DNA of 64,000 nucleotides from an uncultured Lacinutrix sp. (GTDB lineage Bacteria; Bacteroidota; Bacteroidia; Flavobacteriales; Flavobacteriaceae): contig NZ_CANMSJ010000002.1 in the NCBI RefSeq assembly GCF_947500605.1, positions 186,001-250,000 on the forward strand, in the 5' to 3' direction. How positions within the stretch are numbered: position 1 is the first letter of the stretch; the number at the start of each line of letters is the position of its first letter. The notes under the pieces were generated by a model. It did no database searches, was not told the DNA's origin, and saw only the letters and a list, made by a program, of their open reading frames with translations. Shown piece by piece: positions 3,954 through 9,336 of this stretch. The position numbers were made by a program, and so were the translations under genes.

Positions 3954-4307
3954 ATGGCAATGGCAAAGAACGACAATAGCACAAATAACAACGTAAACGA
4001 TTCTACTTCTAAAATTGATGCGATAAAGCAGCTTATTTTTGGTGAAAACATCCAAGAATATAATCATGAATTTGAAGCTGTAAAACTAGACATCCTTAAA
4101 AAGAAAAAAGAACTAGAAAGCTTACTTGATGATGTTAAGGCGGAATTACTTCAAAATATTGATAACTTAAGTACAGATATTAATATAAGAATTACCGAAT
4201 TAGAAAACACCTTAGAAGACAAGGCAGATGCTCTTGAAGAGAAAAAATTAGACCGCAAACTTTTTGGCGATTTACTAATTAAACTTGGCGAGAAAATAAG
4301 TAACTAA
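3954..4307 (+). CDS. Small coiled-coil protein, first gene of the GTPase/histidine-kinase locus
   Basis: I do not recognise a named family. The 117-residue protein is soluble and highly charged. A low-complexity Asn/Ser/Thr N-terminus (about 20 residues) precedes a conserved-looking segment (IDAIKQLIFGENIQEY) and then heptad-rich helices (DILKKKKELESLLDDVKAEL and a second run to about residue 100) that should form a coiled coil. It ends with a short amphipathic helix (DRKLFGDLLIKLGEKIS). Two ATGs, two codons apart, compete for the start. Only 15 bases separate it from the Roadblock-like gene, implying co-translation. The ending DLLIKLGEKI recalls cytoplasmic adaptor proteins, but no function is claimed. 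Confidence 0.7.
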   Translation: MAMAKNDNSTNNNVNDSTSKIDAIKQLIFGENIQEYNHEFEAVKLDILKKKKELESLLDDVKAELLQNIDNLSTDINIRITELENTLEDKADALEEKKLDRKLFGDLLIKLGEKISN

Positions 4308-4322
4308 TTTGATTCTCACGCC

Positions 4323-5129
4323 ATGAATCAAGACGAAAAACTTTCTATTTTAAAAGACATCTTACTAACAGATGAGCGTGAGTATGCAAAAAAAGTAGAA
4401 GAAAAGCTTAAAGTTGTTGAAGACATTATAAACAAACAGAAGCAATTGTCTGAGCGTGTAGATCCAATAATAGATCAAAAACTCGATGATTTTGTTTCAC
4501 AAATACCAAAAACTTTAGGACCTGTAATTACAGAAGCATTAAAAAGTGAAATTAAAAACTCTCAAGATGCTGTTGTAGAAGCTTTATTTCCAATTATTGG
4601 GAAAATGATAAAAAAGTATGTACAGCAGGAGATGCAAATTCTATCTGAACAGATAAACGCAAAAATGAATAGTGCGTTTTCTTTTGAAGGTTTAAAACGT
4701 AAGTTTAAATCTAAAAGAACGGGCGTAAGCGAAGCAGATTTAATGTTACAAGAACTAGCTCAACCTGTTATAGAACAAATTATGGTTATTGAGAAAGGTT
4801 CTGGAATAATCATTTCAGAATATTCTAAAACACAAGCTATAGACGAAGACATGGTCTCTGGTATGCTTACTGCAATTAAAAGTTTTGCAGAAGATGCATT
4901 TGAGAAAGAAAACCAAGAATTAAACTATATAGAATACGACAGTTTCCATATACACCTTCAAAATTTCTCAGAATATTACATTGCAGTAATTATTTCTGGC
5001 CCTTATAATGTTGTTTTTAAAAGTAAACTTGAAGACAAATTATTAGATTTTGCGCAAAATTATATTAATAAAGAGGATATTAATGATCACGATTTATTTT
5101 CTAAAAAATTGAAATCGTTTTTCGAGTAA
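4323..5129 (+). CDS. Coiled-coil protein with C-terminal Roadblock/LC7-like domain, candidate GTPase partner
   Basis: A 268-residue soluble protein without signal peptide or membrane segment. Residues 1-130 are helical and charged (for example EEKLKVVEDIINKQKQLSE, then KSEIKNSQDAVVEALFPIIGK). From about residue 150 the pattern changes to a compact alpha/beta domain: PVIEQIMVIEKGSGIIISEY (two strands with a turn), a helix DEDMVSGMLTAIKSFAEDAF, then strands IEYDSFHIHLQNFSEYYIAV and a final helix. That order resembles Roadblock/LC7 (MglB-like) domains that bind or regulate small GTPases. The gene immediately 3' is such a GTPase. The fold assignment is by eye and is inference. Some databases label relatives as OmpA-type proteins; nothing of an OmpA domain is visible here. 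Confidence 0.65.
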   Translation: MNQDEKLSILKDILLTDEREYAKKVEEKLKVVEDIINKQKQLSERVDPIIDQKLDDFVSQIPKTLGPVITEALKSEIKNSQDAVVEALFPIIGKMIKKYVQQEMQILSEQINAKMNSAFSFEGLKRKFKSKRTGVSEADLMLQELAQPVIEQIMVIEKGSGIIISEYSKTQAIDEDMVSGMLTAIKSFAEDAFEKENQELNYIEYDSFHIHLQNFSEYYIAVIISGPYNVVFKSKLEDKLLDFAQNYINKEDINDHDLFSKKLKSFFE

Positions 5130-5168
5130 CTATTTCTATATATAAGTAATTATACTATATCCTTTTCT

Positions 5169-5176
5169 TATTTTTG
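5169..5176 (+). promoter_or_regulatory. Promoter -7 element ahead of the small GTPase gene
   Basis: TATTTTTG matches TANNTTTG exactly, 56 bases before the GTPase ATG inside the only sizeable gap (102 bases) of the locus. It suggests that the GTPase and both kinases can be transcribed separately from the two upstream coiled-coil genes. No TTG -33 box is apparent. Confidence 0.4.
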
Positions 5177-5231
5177 CCCAGCTATATCTATAGCACTTTT
5201 TTAATTAAAAAATTAAAGTTATATTTCTAAA

Positions 5232-5726
5232 ATGAAAATTTCTAAAAAAATAGTTTTATTAGGTCATTTTGGTGTTGGTAAATCTTCACTTATTAGACGT
5301 TTTGTAGAAAACACATTTTCTGAAGATTATAAAGTAACTATTGGTGTACACATTTTTAAGAAAAATGTAACTATTCCAGAAAAAGGAACAGACGTTTCTT
5401 TAGTTATTTGGGATTTAGAAGGAAACGATGATATAAGTAACACTAGGCTATCTTATCTTTTAGGTACACATGCCTTTATTTATGTGTACGATGTAACAAG
5501 ACCTGCAACATACGAGAAGTTAGAAAGCGAACTAAATTTCCTTAAAGAAAAGCAAAAAAACACACCTATTACTGTTGTTGGTAACAAAGAAGATTTGGTT
5601 ACCAAAGCATATATAAAGCAGAACAGCGATAATTTTGGTCGTTTAACAGATTTTTATGTCAGTGCAAAGACAGGAGATAAAGTTGACTTTCTTTTTTCTA
5701 ATTTAGCTGAATCGCTTATTAAATAA
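5232..5726 (+). CDS. Rab/Ras-like small GTPase with Asn at the catalytic Gln position
   Basis: A 164-residue single-domain GTPase. All five G motifs are present: G1 GHFGVGKS (residues 11-18), G2 Thr36 within YKVTIGVHIF, G3 WDLEG with Asp61 and Gly64, G4 NKED (118-121) and G5 SAK (144-146). The switch I segment is strikingly like eukaryotic Rab proteins (YxxTIGVxF). The residue after the G3 glycine, equivalent to Ras Gln61, is Asn65, which should lower intrinsic hydrolysis or require a partner in trans. There is no C-terminal Cys prenylation motif or membrane anchor, so it is probably cytosolic. It sits between the Roadblock-like protein and two hybrid histidine kinases (18 bases to the first), suggesting a shared pathway. 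The biological output is unknown. Confidence 0.88.
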   Translation: MKISKKIVLLGHFGVGKSSLIRRFVENTFSEDYKVTIGVHIFKKNVTIPEKGTDVSLVIWDLEGNDDISNTRLSYLLGTHAFIYVYDVTRPATYEKLESELNFLKEKQKNTPITVVGNKEDLVTKAYIKQNSDNFGRLTDFYVSAKTGDKVDFLFSNLAESLIK

Positions 5727-5744
5727 GCAAAAAACAGCTTTACA

Positions 5745-7268
5745 ATGTTAGAAGTTTACAAGAAAAAGTATATAAAACCAGTTCTACAATATTCAATATT
5801 AGATTTCGAAGGAAACATAATAGAATCTGATAACGCACTATTTTTAAATTTTAAGAATCAGTACGTAGGAGATATTCATCCTTTTTTTGAAACAATAACC
5901 TCTCTTTTAACTGCAGAGGAAAATGAAACTGTTTTTTCTTGTATTCATTTAAATATTGAAGGCAAAGCAATTACTGCAGATATAATTTTACAAACCTTTG
6001 GTGATGCTAAAAACCCGTTATTAATCATTCACGATTTAACGTCTCACTATAATAACTATCAAACTACTGCACAGGTTAGAAATGAGTCTGTTATCAACTC
6101 TCAAATTTTAGAGTTAAAAAACACATATTTAAAAGAAAAAGAAGTTTTTAAAAACAGTTTTATCGCAAACTTTAGTCATGAGTTGCGAGATCCACTAACT
6201 GGTATTTTAACGTTTACAGATATATTAAGCAAAACCAATTTAGACTTAAAGCAGAAAGATTATATTCAAATATTAAACTCTTCATCAAATTTTTTAAAGA
6301 AAATGATTGATGATATTCTAGACATTTCTAAAATTGAATCTGGAAACTTAGAACTCTCTATAGAACCTTTTTATCTTTTAGATTTATTAAATGAAATTAA
6401 GTTTAATTATAAGCTTAAAGCTGAACAAAAAGGATTAGAGTTTAGCTTTAATTTTGATGATAAATTACCAGAGATTGTAGGTGGCGATGCTAAAAGATTA
6501 CAACAAGTTTTAACAAACTTATTAGATAACGCATTAAAATTCACAGATAGTGGTAGCATAAGCTTTAACGCATCTTTAAACCAGCTTAGAGCGCAAAAAG
6601 CAAGTATTCACTTTGAAATAGTTGATACTGGGATAGGTATAAAAGAGGAAAACTTTGAAACTATTTTTTCAAGTTTCTCTCAAGTAAGCAACAACCACTC
6701 GTACAAAGGCACAGGACTTGGACTTGCTATTGTAAAGTATTTAGTAGAATTAACCAATAGTAAAATAAGTGTTTCTTCTAACTATGGAAAAGGCTCTATT
6801 TTTTCTACAAATATTAATTTTGTAGCAAACTCAACGTTAGTTGTTAATAAGCCAAAAAATAAAAAAGAAATAAAATTTGACGTTTCAAGAAAATACAACA
6901 TTTTACTAGTTGAAGATTCTGAAATCACACAACTCTCTGTTTTAAAAATCTTAGCATCACAAGGTCATTTTTTCCTAGATATTGTTACTAAACCAGACGA
7001 TGTACTTGCAAGAATATCGAATATAGACAGTGAGATTGATTTGGTACTAATGGATATAAAGTTGAAAGAATTTCGTGGAGACGAAATTGCAAAACAAATA
7101 AGAAAACTTCCAGAACGTCACCAGAAAAAAGTGCCAATTGTAGCTATGACGGCTAAAATTTTTAAAGAAGACTTAAAACGTTATAAAAAAGCGGGAATAA
7201 ACGATGTTTTAAAAAAACCGTTTAACGAAAGTCAGCTATTAGAAATAATTGCAAATAACCTGAAATAA
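5745..7268 (+). CDS. Hybrid sensor histidine kinase (PAS-like sensor, HisKA, HATPase, receiver), catalytically intact
   Basis: A 507-residue cytoplasmic hybrid kinase. Residues 1-110 form a PAS-like sensor (SILDFEGNIIESD ... IHPFFETI ... LLIIHDLT), followed by a short coiled coil. The HisKA H-box is FSHELRDPL with His145. The ATPase domain has an N-box (NLLDNALKFTD), G1 (DTGIGIKEEN), F-box and G2 (GTGLGLAIVK). The C-terminal receiver has the acidic pair in LLVEDSE, phosphorylatable Asp437 (LMDIK), the Thr of VAMTA and Lys in KKPF. No membrane segments are visible, so it senses a cytosolic cue or a protein partner. It follows the small GTPase by 18 bases and precedes a paralogue of the same architecture and nearly identical length. 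Confidence 0.92.
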   Translation: MLEVYKKKYIKPVLQYSILDFEGNIIESDNALFLNFKNQYVGDIHPFFETITSLLTAEENETVFSCIHLNIEGKAITADIILQTFGDAKNPLLIIHDLTSHYNNYQTTAQVRNESVINSQILELKNTYLKEKEVFKNSFIANFSHELRDPLTGILTFTDILSKTNLDLKQKDYIQILNSSSNFLKKMIDDILDISKIESGNLELSIEPFYLLDLLNEIKFNYKLKAEQKGLEFSFNFDDKLPEIVGGDAKRLQQVLTNLLDNALKFTDSGSISFNASLNQLRAQKASIHFEIVDTGIGIKEENFETIFSSFSQVSNNHSYKGTGLGLAIVKYLVELTNSKISVSSNYGKGSIFSTNINFVANSTLVVNKPKNKKEIKFDVSRKYNILLVEDSEITQLSVLKILASQGHFFLDIVTKPDDVLARISNIDSEIDLVLMDIKLKEFRGDEIAKQIRKLPERHQKKVPIVAMTAKIFKEDLKRYKKAGINDVLKKPFNESQLLEIIANNLK

Positions 7269-7344
7269 GCAAAAGAACTCCGCTTATTCGTGTTTTAAAA
7301 TACTGTATCTTTATATTTAATAAAATTATTGCCAATAATTATAC

Positions 7345-8871
7345 ATGCTCGAGAATTACACTATTCCTTATAACGAAACCACAAATCAAATATTACTTAT
7401 TAGTGATGATGGAGTTATTATAGATGCTGAATCTATACTTTTTAAAAATTGTATCGGTAAATCTATAGACAAACTACATCCTTTTTTCTATAGTATATTC
7501 GCTTTATTAACTCAAAATAATAAAACCTTCAATTTTGAATGTGTCAATCTAGATTTAGATGGCACTAACTATACTATTGATGCGACTTTACACATTAACA
7601 ACGAAAACGAACCTTCTGTTTTTGTATTTCAAGAACTAACAAAACAATATGTTTTGCTACAAAAAGCGGCTCAAAAAAGAAATGTTGCCGAAATAAAATC
7701 TCAGCTATTAAGTTTCAACAATACTATTCTACAGGAAAAAGAAGCATTTAAAAATACATTTATAGCAAATTTTAGCAACGAAATAAAAACACCTGTTAAT
7801 ACTATAAATGGTTTTGTTTCTCTTCTAGAAAATACAAATCTAGAACAAAGTCAGCGTTATAATCTTGATGTTATTAAAAACACTAACGACAAGTTAAAAA
7901 CAATGATTAGCGATATTATAGATATTTCTAAAATTGAGGCAGACTATTTCCCAATACGCCCAATACGTTATAACCTTCTCGAAGAATTAAACCTAATTAC
8001 TCAAATATTTACTCAAAAATGTAAAGAGAAAGGCTTAACATTAAAATATAGTATTGATCCAGAATGTCCTAAATATGTTATTGCAGACAAGTACAGGTTA
8101 GCACAAATTGTAAACAATATTATTGGTAATGCTATTAAATTTACTCCATCTGGAAGCATCGAATTAACAACCGAATGCGTTAAAAAAACCGAAGATTCTG
8201 CTACATTATTATTTAAAGTAAAAGATACTGGAGTTGGTATTGAAAAAAAGGAAATCGATTCTATTTTTAATAGTTTTCATCAAATCACAAATAGCTTAGT
8301 TAATAATGGTGTTGGATTAGGACTTTCCATAACAAAAAAGCTTATTCATGCTTTAAAAGGTACAATAACATTAAAAAGTGAAGTTGGAGTAGGCTCTACC
8401 TTTTGCATAGCATTAGATTTTAAAATAGCTCCAGACCAAAAGGACGACGTTATTATAACTAAAACCTCGAAAACGACTTCTAAAAACGATTTTAAAATTT
8501 TACTTGCAGATCCTTTACGCGATAATCAAGAAAAACTTTTAAATATTATTAGTAAACTAAAAAACTGTGATGTTGTTGTTATAGAAGATGGAGACCAAGT
8601 TATAGAGGAGCTTTACAAGACTACTTTCGATCTTGTAATACTAAACCTTAAACTACCAACTACAGATGGCTTAGATACTACGCGCTATATAAGGCACTCA
8701 GAATATAAAGACATTAATAAAATTCCTATTGTTGTAATAAGCGAAAATCCTTCTAAAGAAGAAGAGGCCTATTGCAAACAAAGAAGAGTAAATAGTTATA
8801 TTGGGAAACCTTTTGTTAAGGCCGAAATACTAAGAAAACTAAAATATATTATACAAAAAAAGCAAGCTTAA
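7345..8871 (+). CDS. Degenerate hybrid histidine kinase paralogue (phospho-acceptor His and Asp both replaced by Asn)
   Basis: A 508-residue protein with the same domain order as the preceding kinase: PAS-like sensor (including the shared HPFF segment), H-box helix, HATPase and receiver. The H-box reads FSNEIKTPV, so Asn145 stands exactly where the neighbour has His145. The receiver reads VILNLKLP, so Asn434 replaces the phospho-acceptor Asp, and the beta-1 acidic pair is reduced to LADP. The nucleotide-binding boxes look intact (NNIIGNAIKFT, DTGVGIEKKEID, GVGLGLSITKK), as does the receiver Lys (GKPF). It should bind ATP but neither autophosphorylate nor accept phosphate by the usual route, arguing for a pseudokinase or allosteric partner of the upstream kinase. 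The open frame shows no sign of decay. Confidence 0.9.
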   Translation: MLENYTIPYNETTNQILLISDDGVIIDAESILFKNCIGKSIDKLHPFFYSIFALLTQNNKTFNFECVNLDLDGTNYTIDATLHINNENEPSVFVFQELTKQYVLLQKAAQKRNVAEIKSQLLSFNNTILQEKEAFKNTFIANFSNEIKTPVNTINGFVSLLENTNLEQSQRYNLDVIKNTNDKLKTMISDIIDISKIEADYFPIRPIRYNLLEELNLITQIFTQKCKEKGLTLKYSIDPECPKYVIADKYRLAQIVNNIIGNAIKFTPSGSIELTTECVKKTEDSATLLFKVKDTGVGIEKKEIDSIFNSFHQITNSLVNNGVGLGLSITKKLIHALKGTITLKSEVGVGSTFCIALDFKIAPDQKDDVIITKTSKTTSKNDFKILLADPLRDNQEKLLNIISKLKNCDVVVIEDGDQVIEELYKTTFDLVILNLKLPTTDGLDTTRYIRHSEYKDINKIPIVVISENPSKEEEAYCKQRRVNSYIGKPFVKAEILRKLKYIIQKKQA

Positions 8872-8885
8872 TAGCTTGCTTTTTT
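8855..8885 (+). terminator. Intrinsic terminator of the GTPase/kinase locus
   Basis: An 8-bp stem AGCAAGCT/AGCTTGCT with a 4-base TAAT loop, flanked by A6 on the left and T5 on the right. The TAA stop of the second kinase lies at the end of the left arm and loop. The A and T tracts make it usable from both strands, suiting the convergent TerB-like gene. Confidence 0.85.
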
Positions 8886-8904: not shown

Positions 8905-9336
8905 TTATCTATTCATTCCTTTTATTTCTTCTGTAAAAGTATCTAAATCCACACCATTACTTACTAAAGTTAATGCTTTATCTATTACGTACTTTACGTT
9001 CTCTGGATTAAAACCTAAACCAACAGCAATTTTACGTAATAAAACCTCTTCGTGATCTCCCTTAATATGATCTACATAAACCATACGAGATAAATCGAAT
9101 AAACGCTCTAAACGACTATCGTAAGATGTTGGAGGATTAATTGGGTGCGATTGGTAATCCTTTAATATAGTTTTATAATCGTTTTCACCAATGTCTAAAT
9201 TACGAGCTAAACGATCTAAGAATGTTTTTTCTTCATCGCTAATAATTCCGTCGTCCATTGCCACTCTTACAATAGATGCAAAATGGTCTTCGTTACGCTT
9301 CTTAAATCCGCTATCAAATAAATCTGAAAATGACAT
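8905..9336 (-). CDS. TerB family tellurite-resistance-like protein
   Basis: A 143-residue all-helical cytoplasmic protein. The pattern DHFASIVRVAMDDGIISDEE followed by FLDRLARNLDIGENDY is typical of TerB-like domains, with acidic residues that bind divalent metal in TerB proteins. Resistance to tellurite is not implied: in Bacteroidota single TerB-domain proteins are mostly uncharacterised and no other ter genes are nearby. It is a single-gene unit, convergent with the kinase genes and divergent from mfd, with a promoter-like TATCTTTG on the minus strand at 9360-9367. Start chosen at the ATG 9336. Confidence 0.75.
   Translation of the reverse strand: MSFSDLFDSGFKKRNEDHFASIVRVAMDDGIISDEEKTFLDRLARNLDIGENDYKTILKDYQSHPINPPTSYDSRLERLFDLSRMVYVDHIKGDHEEVLLRKIAVGLGFNPENVKYVIDKALTLVSNGVDLDTFTEEIKGMNR

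What the first reader, a model, noticed from the sequence alone, without database searches (positions are those of the whole stretch)
3954..8885. Candidate undescribed signalling module: coiled-coil protein, Roadblock-like protein, Rab-like GTPase and two hybrid kinases
Seen: five consecutive plus-strand genes end at one strong terminator (8855-8885); the GTPase and kinases follow a -7 element at 5169. Known: Roadblock proteins (MglB, Ragulator) regulate small GTPases, and hybrid kinases relay phosphate. Inference: the GTPase with its coiled-coil/Roadblock-like partners couples to the two cytosolic kinases; this combination is not one I recognise as a named bacterial system. The nearest analogue, MglA/MglB polarity control, lacks adjacent hybrid kinases.
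Basis: partly seen in the sequence, partly recalled or inferred. Interest (0 to 1): 0.78.

Follow-up and report, generated by a model that had tools for sequence, protein, structure and literature searches.

The report
Flavobacterial Rab-like GTPase signalling operon
A marine flavobacterium carries a conserved set of genes in which a small Rab-like switch protein, a predicted Roadblock-type regulator and a histidine kinase sit side by side; this kind of gene set was predicted from genomes in 2014 and, as far as our searches show, has not been studied in the laboratory.

Summary
In detail: five plus-strand genes (coiled coil P1, Roadblock-like P2, Rab-like GTPase, two hybrid kinases) end at one strong hairpin. 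'Undescribed' does not hold: Wuichet and Søgaard-Andersen (2014, PMC4316618) described this neighbourhood for 'Group 1 Rup' GTPases and likened it to actinobacterial conservons; my searches found no experimental follow-up. In 395 Bacteroidota genomes P2 and the GTPase occur in the same 14 (four marginal matches set aside). Splits fall between P2 and GTPase. Beyond the 2014 text: P2's unknown domain is predicted to have a Roadblock/longin fold (structure only; sequence tests failed); flavobacterial P2 lacks the membrane helix and OmpA tail; one glutamine after the PAS domain is the only invariant column among 16 output proteins of several architectures; the second kinase has a dead receiver and here no phosphoacceptor histidine, so cannot relay phosphate. 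Most likely: P1-P2 sets the GTPase's nucleotide state and the GTPase gates HK1 through its PAS-glutamine region. No interface was tested.

The parts
3954..4307 (+). P1: small soluble coiled-coil protein, 117 aa; conserved core around KIxAIKxLIFGEN and IDxLSTDxNIRIT
   Evidence: found upstream of P2 in 80 of 80 named loci
4323..5129 (+). P2: 268 aa; N-terminal helical part plus C-terminal Roadblock/longin-like domain; no membrane helix, no OmpA tail
4731..5072 (+). Roadblock/longin-like domain of P2 (residues about 137-250; helix-2 strands-helix-3 strands-helix)
   Evidence: AlphaFold block means of pLDDT 67-90 here, 57 in block 191-200; Foldseek matches to AP sigma, Rag, Ego3, MglB
5169..5176 (+). 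TATTTTTG, Bacteroidota -7-like element (motif recalled) in the P2/GTPase gap; lineage-specific internal promoter candidate
5232..5726 (+). Rab-like small GTPase of Group 1 Rup type, 164 aa; GHFGVGKSS, WDLEGN (Asn at the Ras Gln61 position), NKED, SAK
5745..7268 (+). HK1: PAS-like N-terminal domain, HisKA, HATPase_c, receiver; soluble hybrid histidine kinase, 507 aa
6072..6074 (+). Gln110 codon of HK1, the only invariant column across 16 diverse output proteins
6177..6179 (+). HK1 phosphoacceptor His145
7053..7055 (+). HK1 receiver phosphoacceptor Asp437
7345..8871 (+). HK2: tandem paralogue of HK1, 508 aa, with the PAS Gln and ATP-binding motifs kept but both phosphoacceptors lost
7777..7779 (+). 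HK2 codon 145, Asn in place of the phosphoacceptor His
8644..8646 (+). HK2 codon 434, Asn in place of the receiver Asp
8856..8885 (+). Strong intrinsic terminator, A-run before and T-run after the stem, so probably serving the convergent gene too

Best explanation
The locus is a Group 1 Rup-type small-GTPase signalling module in a Lacinutrix species. P1 (coiled coil) and P2 (Roadblock/longin-like) form the regulator half, which sets the nucleotide state of the Rab-like GTPase. The GTPase is the switch. Its GTP form binds the PAS-glutamine region at the N-terminus of the output protein and gates it: here the soluble hybrid kinase HK1, which has the residues to phosphorylate His145 and then Asp437 and hand phosphate to an Hpt/regulator encoded elsewhere. 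HK2 is a duplicated output that keeps the PAS-glutamine region and ATP pocket but cannot relay phosphate; it most likely acts as a dimer partner or competitor of HK1. Shown: the genes, conservation of order, co-occurrence, catalytic residues, the invariant glutamine. Predicted by structure only: the P2 and PAS folds. Inferred: P1-P2 as GAP/GEF, GTPase-PAS binding, direction of signal, the role of HK2.
For: The same 14 of 395 Bacteroidota genomes hold P2 (marginal G428 left out) and the GTPase (three f18 matches near 1e-12 in ~900-aa frames left out). P2 and GTPase hit the same 4 plasmids of 72,556. In the 5 genomes seen with the unit split, P1-P2 lie apart from GTPase-output. The output changes (hybrid kinase, kinase with Hpt, plain kinase, sigma-54 activator, nucleotide cyclase) but its N-terminal region keeps one invariant Gln (16 of 16 outputs; 113 of 113 kinase rows). 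Because sigma-54 activators and cyclases are end points, the GTPase is likely upstream of the output. That PAS type is found only in HK1 and HK2 in this genome. Extra GTPases come with an extra PAS-only protein in L056-L058. P2 fold. HK1 His in 100 of 100 rows.
Against: No interface was modelled or measured. P2 is not found by Robl_LC7, and profile-profile comparison with 16 Bacteroidota Roadblock proteins is inconclusive (probability 3%, E 0.014, colinear over 101 columns; the GTPase control gave a better score, probability 27%, over a chance 17-column match). The best Foldseek hits are AP sigma subunits (longin), with MglB at rank 19. The P2 model as a whole is poor (mean pLDDT 64, pTM 0.47). 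23 of 100 HK1-type rows lack the receiver Asp, so phosphorelay is not universal. 13 of 78 named GTPases carry Gln in G3 while the output keeps its Gln (77 of 77), which weakens the idea that the output's Gln replaces it. In L060 a PAS-only gene lies between P2 and the GTPase, and its Gln seems to be lost.
Confidence: 0.66

Rival explanations
1. Conservon-like flow in the other direction: the kinase senses a signal and controls the GTPase, and GTP-GTPase is the output acting on unknown targets.
For: In actinobacterial conservons the kinase-like CvnA is upstream and the GTPase is posited to be the output (PMC4316618 section 18; PMC13343842 passages). Lost receiver Asp in 23 of 100 HK1-type rows would matter less.
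Against: In related loci the protein after the GTPase is a sigma-54 activator (L167-L169) or a nucleotide cyclase (L201), which are end points. HK1 carries an intact receiver; in L173 a receiver-sigma-54 regulator follows the GTPase-kinase pair.
Confidence: 0.2
2. P2's alpha/beta domain has a Roadblock/longin-like shape but acts as a dimerisation scaffold with P1, not as a GTPase regulator.
For: [P1-P2] stands apart from the GTPase in L105, L111 and three f19 genomes; no Robl_LC7 signal.
Against: P2 and the GTPase still co-occur in each of those five genomes and in the same 14 of 395 genomes.
Confidence: 0.2
3. A member of the MglA/MglB polarity system.
For: Small GTPase next to a Roadblock-like protein.
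Against: The GTPase keeps the G3 Asp (WDLEG), where nine Bacteroidota MglA-like GTPases have T or G (VPGQ/TPGQ), and it separates from them with 100/94 support; no Robl_LC7 match in the genome.
Confidence: 0.02
4. The genes are merely neighbours in a housekeeping region (FBPase, TerB-like, Mfd).
For: FBPase lies directly upstream in 64 of 78 named loci with enough upstream sequence.
Against: Order is kept without FBPase upstream (14 of those 78) and with other flanks (e.g. L063-L065, L069), and in other phyla.
Confidence: 0.02

Closest known systems
Group 1 Rup GTPase neighbourhood (Wuichet and Søgaard-Andersen 2014, PMC4316618)
   Same: GTPase close to the Rab/Ras/Rho group without G3 Gln; coiled-coil protein; protein with an unassigned conserved domain; output protein with an invariant N-terminal Gln; Bacteroidetes among the hosts; prediction of a conservon-like complex
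   Different: Here P2 lacks the membrane helix and OmpA tail, its domain is given a predicted Roadblock/longin fold, the output N-terminus is predicted as PAS, and HK2 is an added receiver-dead copy; sigma-54 activators and a nucleotide cyclase appear as further outputs in relatives
Actinobacterial conservon / AGPS (CvnA-D; PMC13343842)
   Same: Operon of a histidine kinase(-like) protein, a Roadblock-type protein, a further protein and a small GTPase
   Different: CvnD is MglA-type and CvnB MglB-type; CvnA is described as membrane-spanning with HAMP, and the conservon without a response regulator; here the GTPase is Rup-type, the kinases are soluble with receivers, and there is no Robl_LC7 match
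MglA/MglB polarity system
   Same: Small GTPase with a Roadblock-family regulator
   Different: Different GTPase branch and G3 motif; no adjacent kinase (recalled)
Ragulator/Rag, AP sigma and other Roadblock/longin proteins of eukaryotes
   Same: Predicted fold of P2's C-terminal domain
   Different: No sequence match in the PDB search; biological context

Membership tests
Group 1 Rup GTPase system | Ras-superfamily GTPase under 240 aa | tested here: met
   164 aa, Pfam Ras 1.6e-31
Group 1 Rup GTPase system | Not of MglA type (G3 Asp retained) | tested here: met
   WD..G in 78 of 78 named and 27 of 27 A2 rows; nine MglA-like rows have T or G; tree split 100/94
Group 1 Rup GTPase system | Conserved G3 Gln absent | tested here: met
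   Asn65 in the window; in named relatives H 28, N 27, Q 13, T 6, L 2, S 1, Y 1 of 78; no Gln in 23 outgroup rows
Group 1 Rup GTPase system | Not coupled to an MglB homologue | tested here: met
   No Robl_LC7 match at E 1 in the genome
Group 1 Rup GTPase system | Three neighbours: coiled coil, unknown-domain protein (often TM+OmpA), output protein | tested here: met
   OmpA version in outgroups
Group 1 Rup GTPase system | Invariant Gln in N-terminal region of the output | tested here: met
   Gln110: 16 of 16, 113 of 113 rows; that it is the paper's residue is my inference, the figure is not held
Group 1 Rup GTPase system | Placement in the published Rup tree | tested here: inconclusive
   Own tree sets it with Nostoc and other non-MglA rows; the paper's own sequences were not at hand
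Roadblock/LC7 superfamily (P2) | Roadblock/longin fold | tested here: inconclusive
   Predicted model only: topology, Foldseek; Roadblock and longin not told apart
Roadblock/LC7 superfamily (P2) | Sequence match to Robl_LC7 profile | tested here: not met
   hhalign inconclusive
Actinobacterial conservon | MglA-type GTPase and MglB-type Roadblock protein | tested here: not met
Actinobacterial conservon | Membrane-spanning kinase | tested here: not met
   hydropathy of HK1 and HK2
Phosphorelay-competent hybrid histidine kinase (HK2) | Phosphoacceptor His and receiver Asp | tested here: not met
   Asn at both places

The most novel reading that the evidence does not exclude
The P2 domain is a divergent Roadblock that regulates the Rab-like GTPase, so the second major branch of bacterial small GTPases (Rup), reported as not coupled to MglB, also runs on a GTPase-Roadblock pair; the GTPase-Roadblock partnership would then be common to MglA, Rup and eukaryotic Rag/Rab regulation, with a PAS-glutamine module as a standard bacterial effector adaptor that plugs one GTPase into many outputs.
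Probability: 0.5. Interest if true: 0.75.

Novelty: new variant of a known kind. Interest (0 to 1): 0.5.

Why it matters
Group 1 Rup proteins are described as very similar to the Rab/Ran/Ras/Rho group (PMC4316618, passages), and my searches found no experimental study of them beyond that paper's mention that one is transcribed. If P2 is a Roadblock-type regulator and the PAS-glutamine region the effector, the proteins of the flavobacterial version are all soluble and small enough to rebuild in vitro, which would make an uncharacterised branch of bacterial G-protein signalling directly testable, and would bear on how old the GTPase-Roadblock partnership is.

Tried and rejected
Rejected: MglA/MglB membership; conservon membership; anti-phage defence (PADLOC gave only stray matches near 6e-4, ZorA3 for P2 and LeoA for the GTPase); 'GTPase and kinase lost' in L105 and L111, which searches suggested and disproved (both sit together elsewhere in those genomes). 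Profile-profile comparison of P2 with Roadblock proteins gave no significant score. P2 against PDB sequences gave only chance matches, HK1's N-terminus none. The general promoter/terminator scan was no better than shuffles and did not list the terminator, I think because its stem takes up the T-run. Not done: complex prediction (only single chains are offered), coevolution of GTPase with PAS or P2.

Left out of counts: G428's weak P2 match (E 0.0037) and three f18 GTPase matches near 1e-12 inside ~900-aa frames; 2 of the 26 family genomes with P2 fragments only (G062, G079). Of 411 confirmed relatives in named genomes the tool kept 80, and these 80 are what I examined. Of 78 named loci with a kinase 77 entered the residue count (L092 is cut by its contig end). 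In one search the flavobacterial outputs were sampled (every fifth of 76). Of four plasmid hits three were opened. P1 was not found beside P2 in L178 even at low threshold, and was missed at first in L169. A first G3 count missed two rows and was replaced. The two 395-genome draws list the same handles, and I take them to be one draw.
Full report
What is there. Five plus-strand genes lie at 3954-8871 and end in a strong hairpin at 8856-8885. In order: P1, a 117-aa soluble coiled coil; P2, 268 aa; a 164-aa Ras-superfamily GTPase (Pfam Ras 1.6e-31; nearest solved structures are Rabs); and two kinases of 507 and 508 aa, each with HisKA, HATPase_c and receiver domains. By hydropathy none of the five has a membrane helix. 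The window belongs to a Lacinutrix relative (P2 is 97% identical to that of L. algicola).

Conservation. In 120 genomes of the family P2 was found in 26 (2 of them fragments) and the GTPase in 24, always within about 2 kb of P2, with no match elsewhere at E 1e-5. The 23 loci other than the window all have P1, P2, GTPase and HK in that order; in L056-L058 a PAS-only gene and a second GTPase lie between the first GTPase and the kinase, and in L060 a PAS-only gene lies between P2 and the GTPase. Of 411 confirmed relatives in named genomes 80 were kept by the tool and examined: 78 have the four genes in order; 4 genomes are in both sets. In the other two (L105, L111) P1-P2 stand alone, and the GTPase with its kinase lies elsewhere in the same genome. 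Over 395 Bacteroidota genomes P2 and the GTPase occur in the same 14 (four marginal matches set aside as told under Tried and rejected). Three f19 genomes hold P1-P2 on one contig and GTPase-output on another, and in L170, L173 and L254 the two halves are divergent (L178 too, but without a P1 match). Outside the phylum, P2 and GTPase hit the same four of 72,556 plasmid records: Nostoc, Mesorhizobium and two Rhizobium. Three were opened and have P1-P2-GTPase-output; OmpA was confirmed in the two P2 proteins scanned. So the unit consists of two half-modules, [P1-P2] and [GTPase-output]. The internal gap and TATTTTTG at 5169 in the window lie at that seam; the gap is a Lacinutrix feature (5 of 78 named loci besides the window; the Lacinutrix genome L075 lacks it), and TA..TT.G is kept in 6 of 6 aligned gaps, full TAnnTTTG in 4.

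P2. No Pfam or NCBIfam family names its C-terminal domain. AlphaFold on 80 sequences gives helix-2 strands-helix-3 strands-helix at residues 137-247, with block means of pLDDT 67-90 there except one block at 57, and a mean of 64 overall. Foldseek returns clathrin-adaptor sigma subunits (best 3.9e-5), Rag proteins, Ego3, Ykt6, Mon1-Ccz1 and Myxococcus MglB (6.3e-4 and weaker). From recall, these share the Roadblock or longin fold, often in proteins that bind small GTPases. Roadblock and longin cannot be told apart from this. Sequence does not confirm it: Pfam is silent and the profile-profile score is not significant. In outgroup P2 proteins the same region is followed by a membrane helix (6 of 6 looked at) and OmpA (above Pfam's cut-off in 6 of 7 scanned, just under it in L175), with BON in three (L167, L169, L200). 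The flavobacterial P2 ends right after the domain, and so does that of G436 of the same class (280 aa).

GTPase. It keeps the G3 Asp, carries Asn where Ras has Gln61, and separates from nine Bacteroidota MglA-like proteins with 100/94 support. The G3 position varies among 78 named relatives (H 28, N 27, Q 13, T 6, L 2, S 1, Y 1) and is not Gln in 23 outgroup rows. The genome has no other match to the Ras family near this strength; the next best is 8.4e-8.

Output proteins. HK1's first 100 residues are predicted as a PAS fold (mean pLDDT 86.8 over residues 1-130; the listed Foldseek hits are nearly all PAS or PAS-like domains, though only one has E under 0.001). This PAS type matches twice in the genome, in HK1 and HK2. 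In three genomes with a second GTPase (L056-L058) the first GTPase is followed by a PAS-only protein. In relatives the output is a hybrid kinase, a kinase with Hpt (L166, L200), a plain kinase (L253, L173, L254), a PAS-sigma-54 activator (L167-L169), a nucleotide cyclase (L201; L202 by likeness), or a 307-aa protein without a Pfam match (L250). Across 16 such proteins one column alone is invariant: Gln110 of HK1, in the helix after the PAS domain. It is present in 113 of 113 kinase rows (4 genomes counted twice). Wuichet and Søgaard-Andersen noted an invariant Gln in this region and linked it to the missing G3 Gln; that 13 of 78 GTPases have their own Gln while the output keeps Gln110 speaks against a strict replacement.

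HK1 and HK2. The phosphoacceptor His is present in 100 of 100 HK1-type rows and the receiver Asp in 77 of 100. HK2 occurs in 11 of 80 named loci and the window. In all 13 HK2 rows (12 distinct genomes, the window among them) the receiver Asp is Asn; the His is lost in the window (Asn) and in L071 (Ser). The ATP-binding residues checked and Gln110 are kept. HK2 of this genome therefore cannot autophosphorylate at that site or use its receiver.

Literature. I read passages and the whole of section 18 of PMC4316618: it describes Group 1 Rup GTPases with three conserved neighbours (coiled coil; unknown domain often with membrane helix and OmpA; output protein with invariant N-terminal Gln), in Bacteroidetes among others, and proposes a conservon-like system. 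It reports 0 of 121 Rup proteins coupled to MglB. Of PMC13343842 (conservons) I read passages. Searches for later work on Rup, or for a GTPase-Roadblock-OmpA link (open-licence library only; listings and abstract starts seen), returned no experimental paper on Rup; this does not show that none exists.

Mechanism, with what is shown and what is inferred. Shown: linkage, order, split point, residues. Predicted: folds. Inferred: P1-P2 as regulator of the nucleotide state; GTP-GTPase binding to the PAS-glutamine region; signal running from GTPase to output, because in relatives the output is a terminal enzyme or a DNA-binding activator; HK2 as non-relaying partner. In other bacteria the envelope-anchored P2 could feed in an envelope signal; the flavobacterial version, soluble throughout, would take its input inside the cell or through the PAS domain.

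Noticed in passing
window 7345-8871 and L071, L072, L074-L082: Tandem kinase paralogue with a receiver that has lost its Asp in every copy seen (13 rows), and the phosphoacceptor His lost in the window and its closest named relative: a pseudokinase in the making.
   Followed up: yes
L056 7296-7895, L057 8435-9028 (-), L058 7921-8514 (-), L060 7248-7637: Stand-alone PAS-like protein of about 130-200 aa after an additional GTPase (L056-L058) or without one (L060), resembling the N-terminus of HK1.
   Followed up: partly
L173 2472-3932 (-), L255 3351-4751 (-): A receiver-sigma-54 activator gene lies beyond the GTPase-kinase pair (L173) or on the same strand beyond the GTPase (L255, kinase not checked), a likely partner regulator.
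   Followed up: partly
L250 5523-6446, L251, L252: 307-aa output protein after the GTPase; L250 has no Pfam match, and L250 and L251 carry the invariant Gln (L252 not aligned).
   Followed up: partly
L179 7635-8300 (G428): Weak P2-like match in a 221-aa protein, no P1 or GTPase match seen beside it; may be chance.
   Followed up: no
window 8905-9336 (-): Convergent TerB-domain gene shares the hairpin at 8856-8885; a TerB-like match is present in 58 of 74 named loci with enough downstream sequence.
   Followed up: partly
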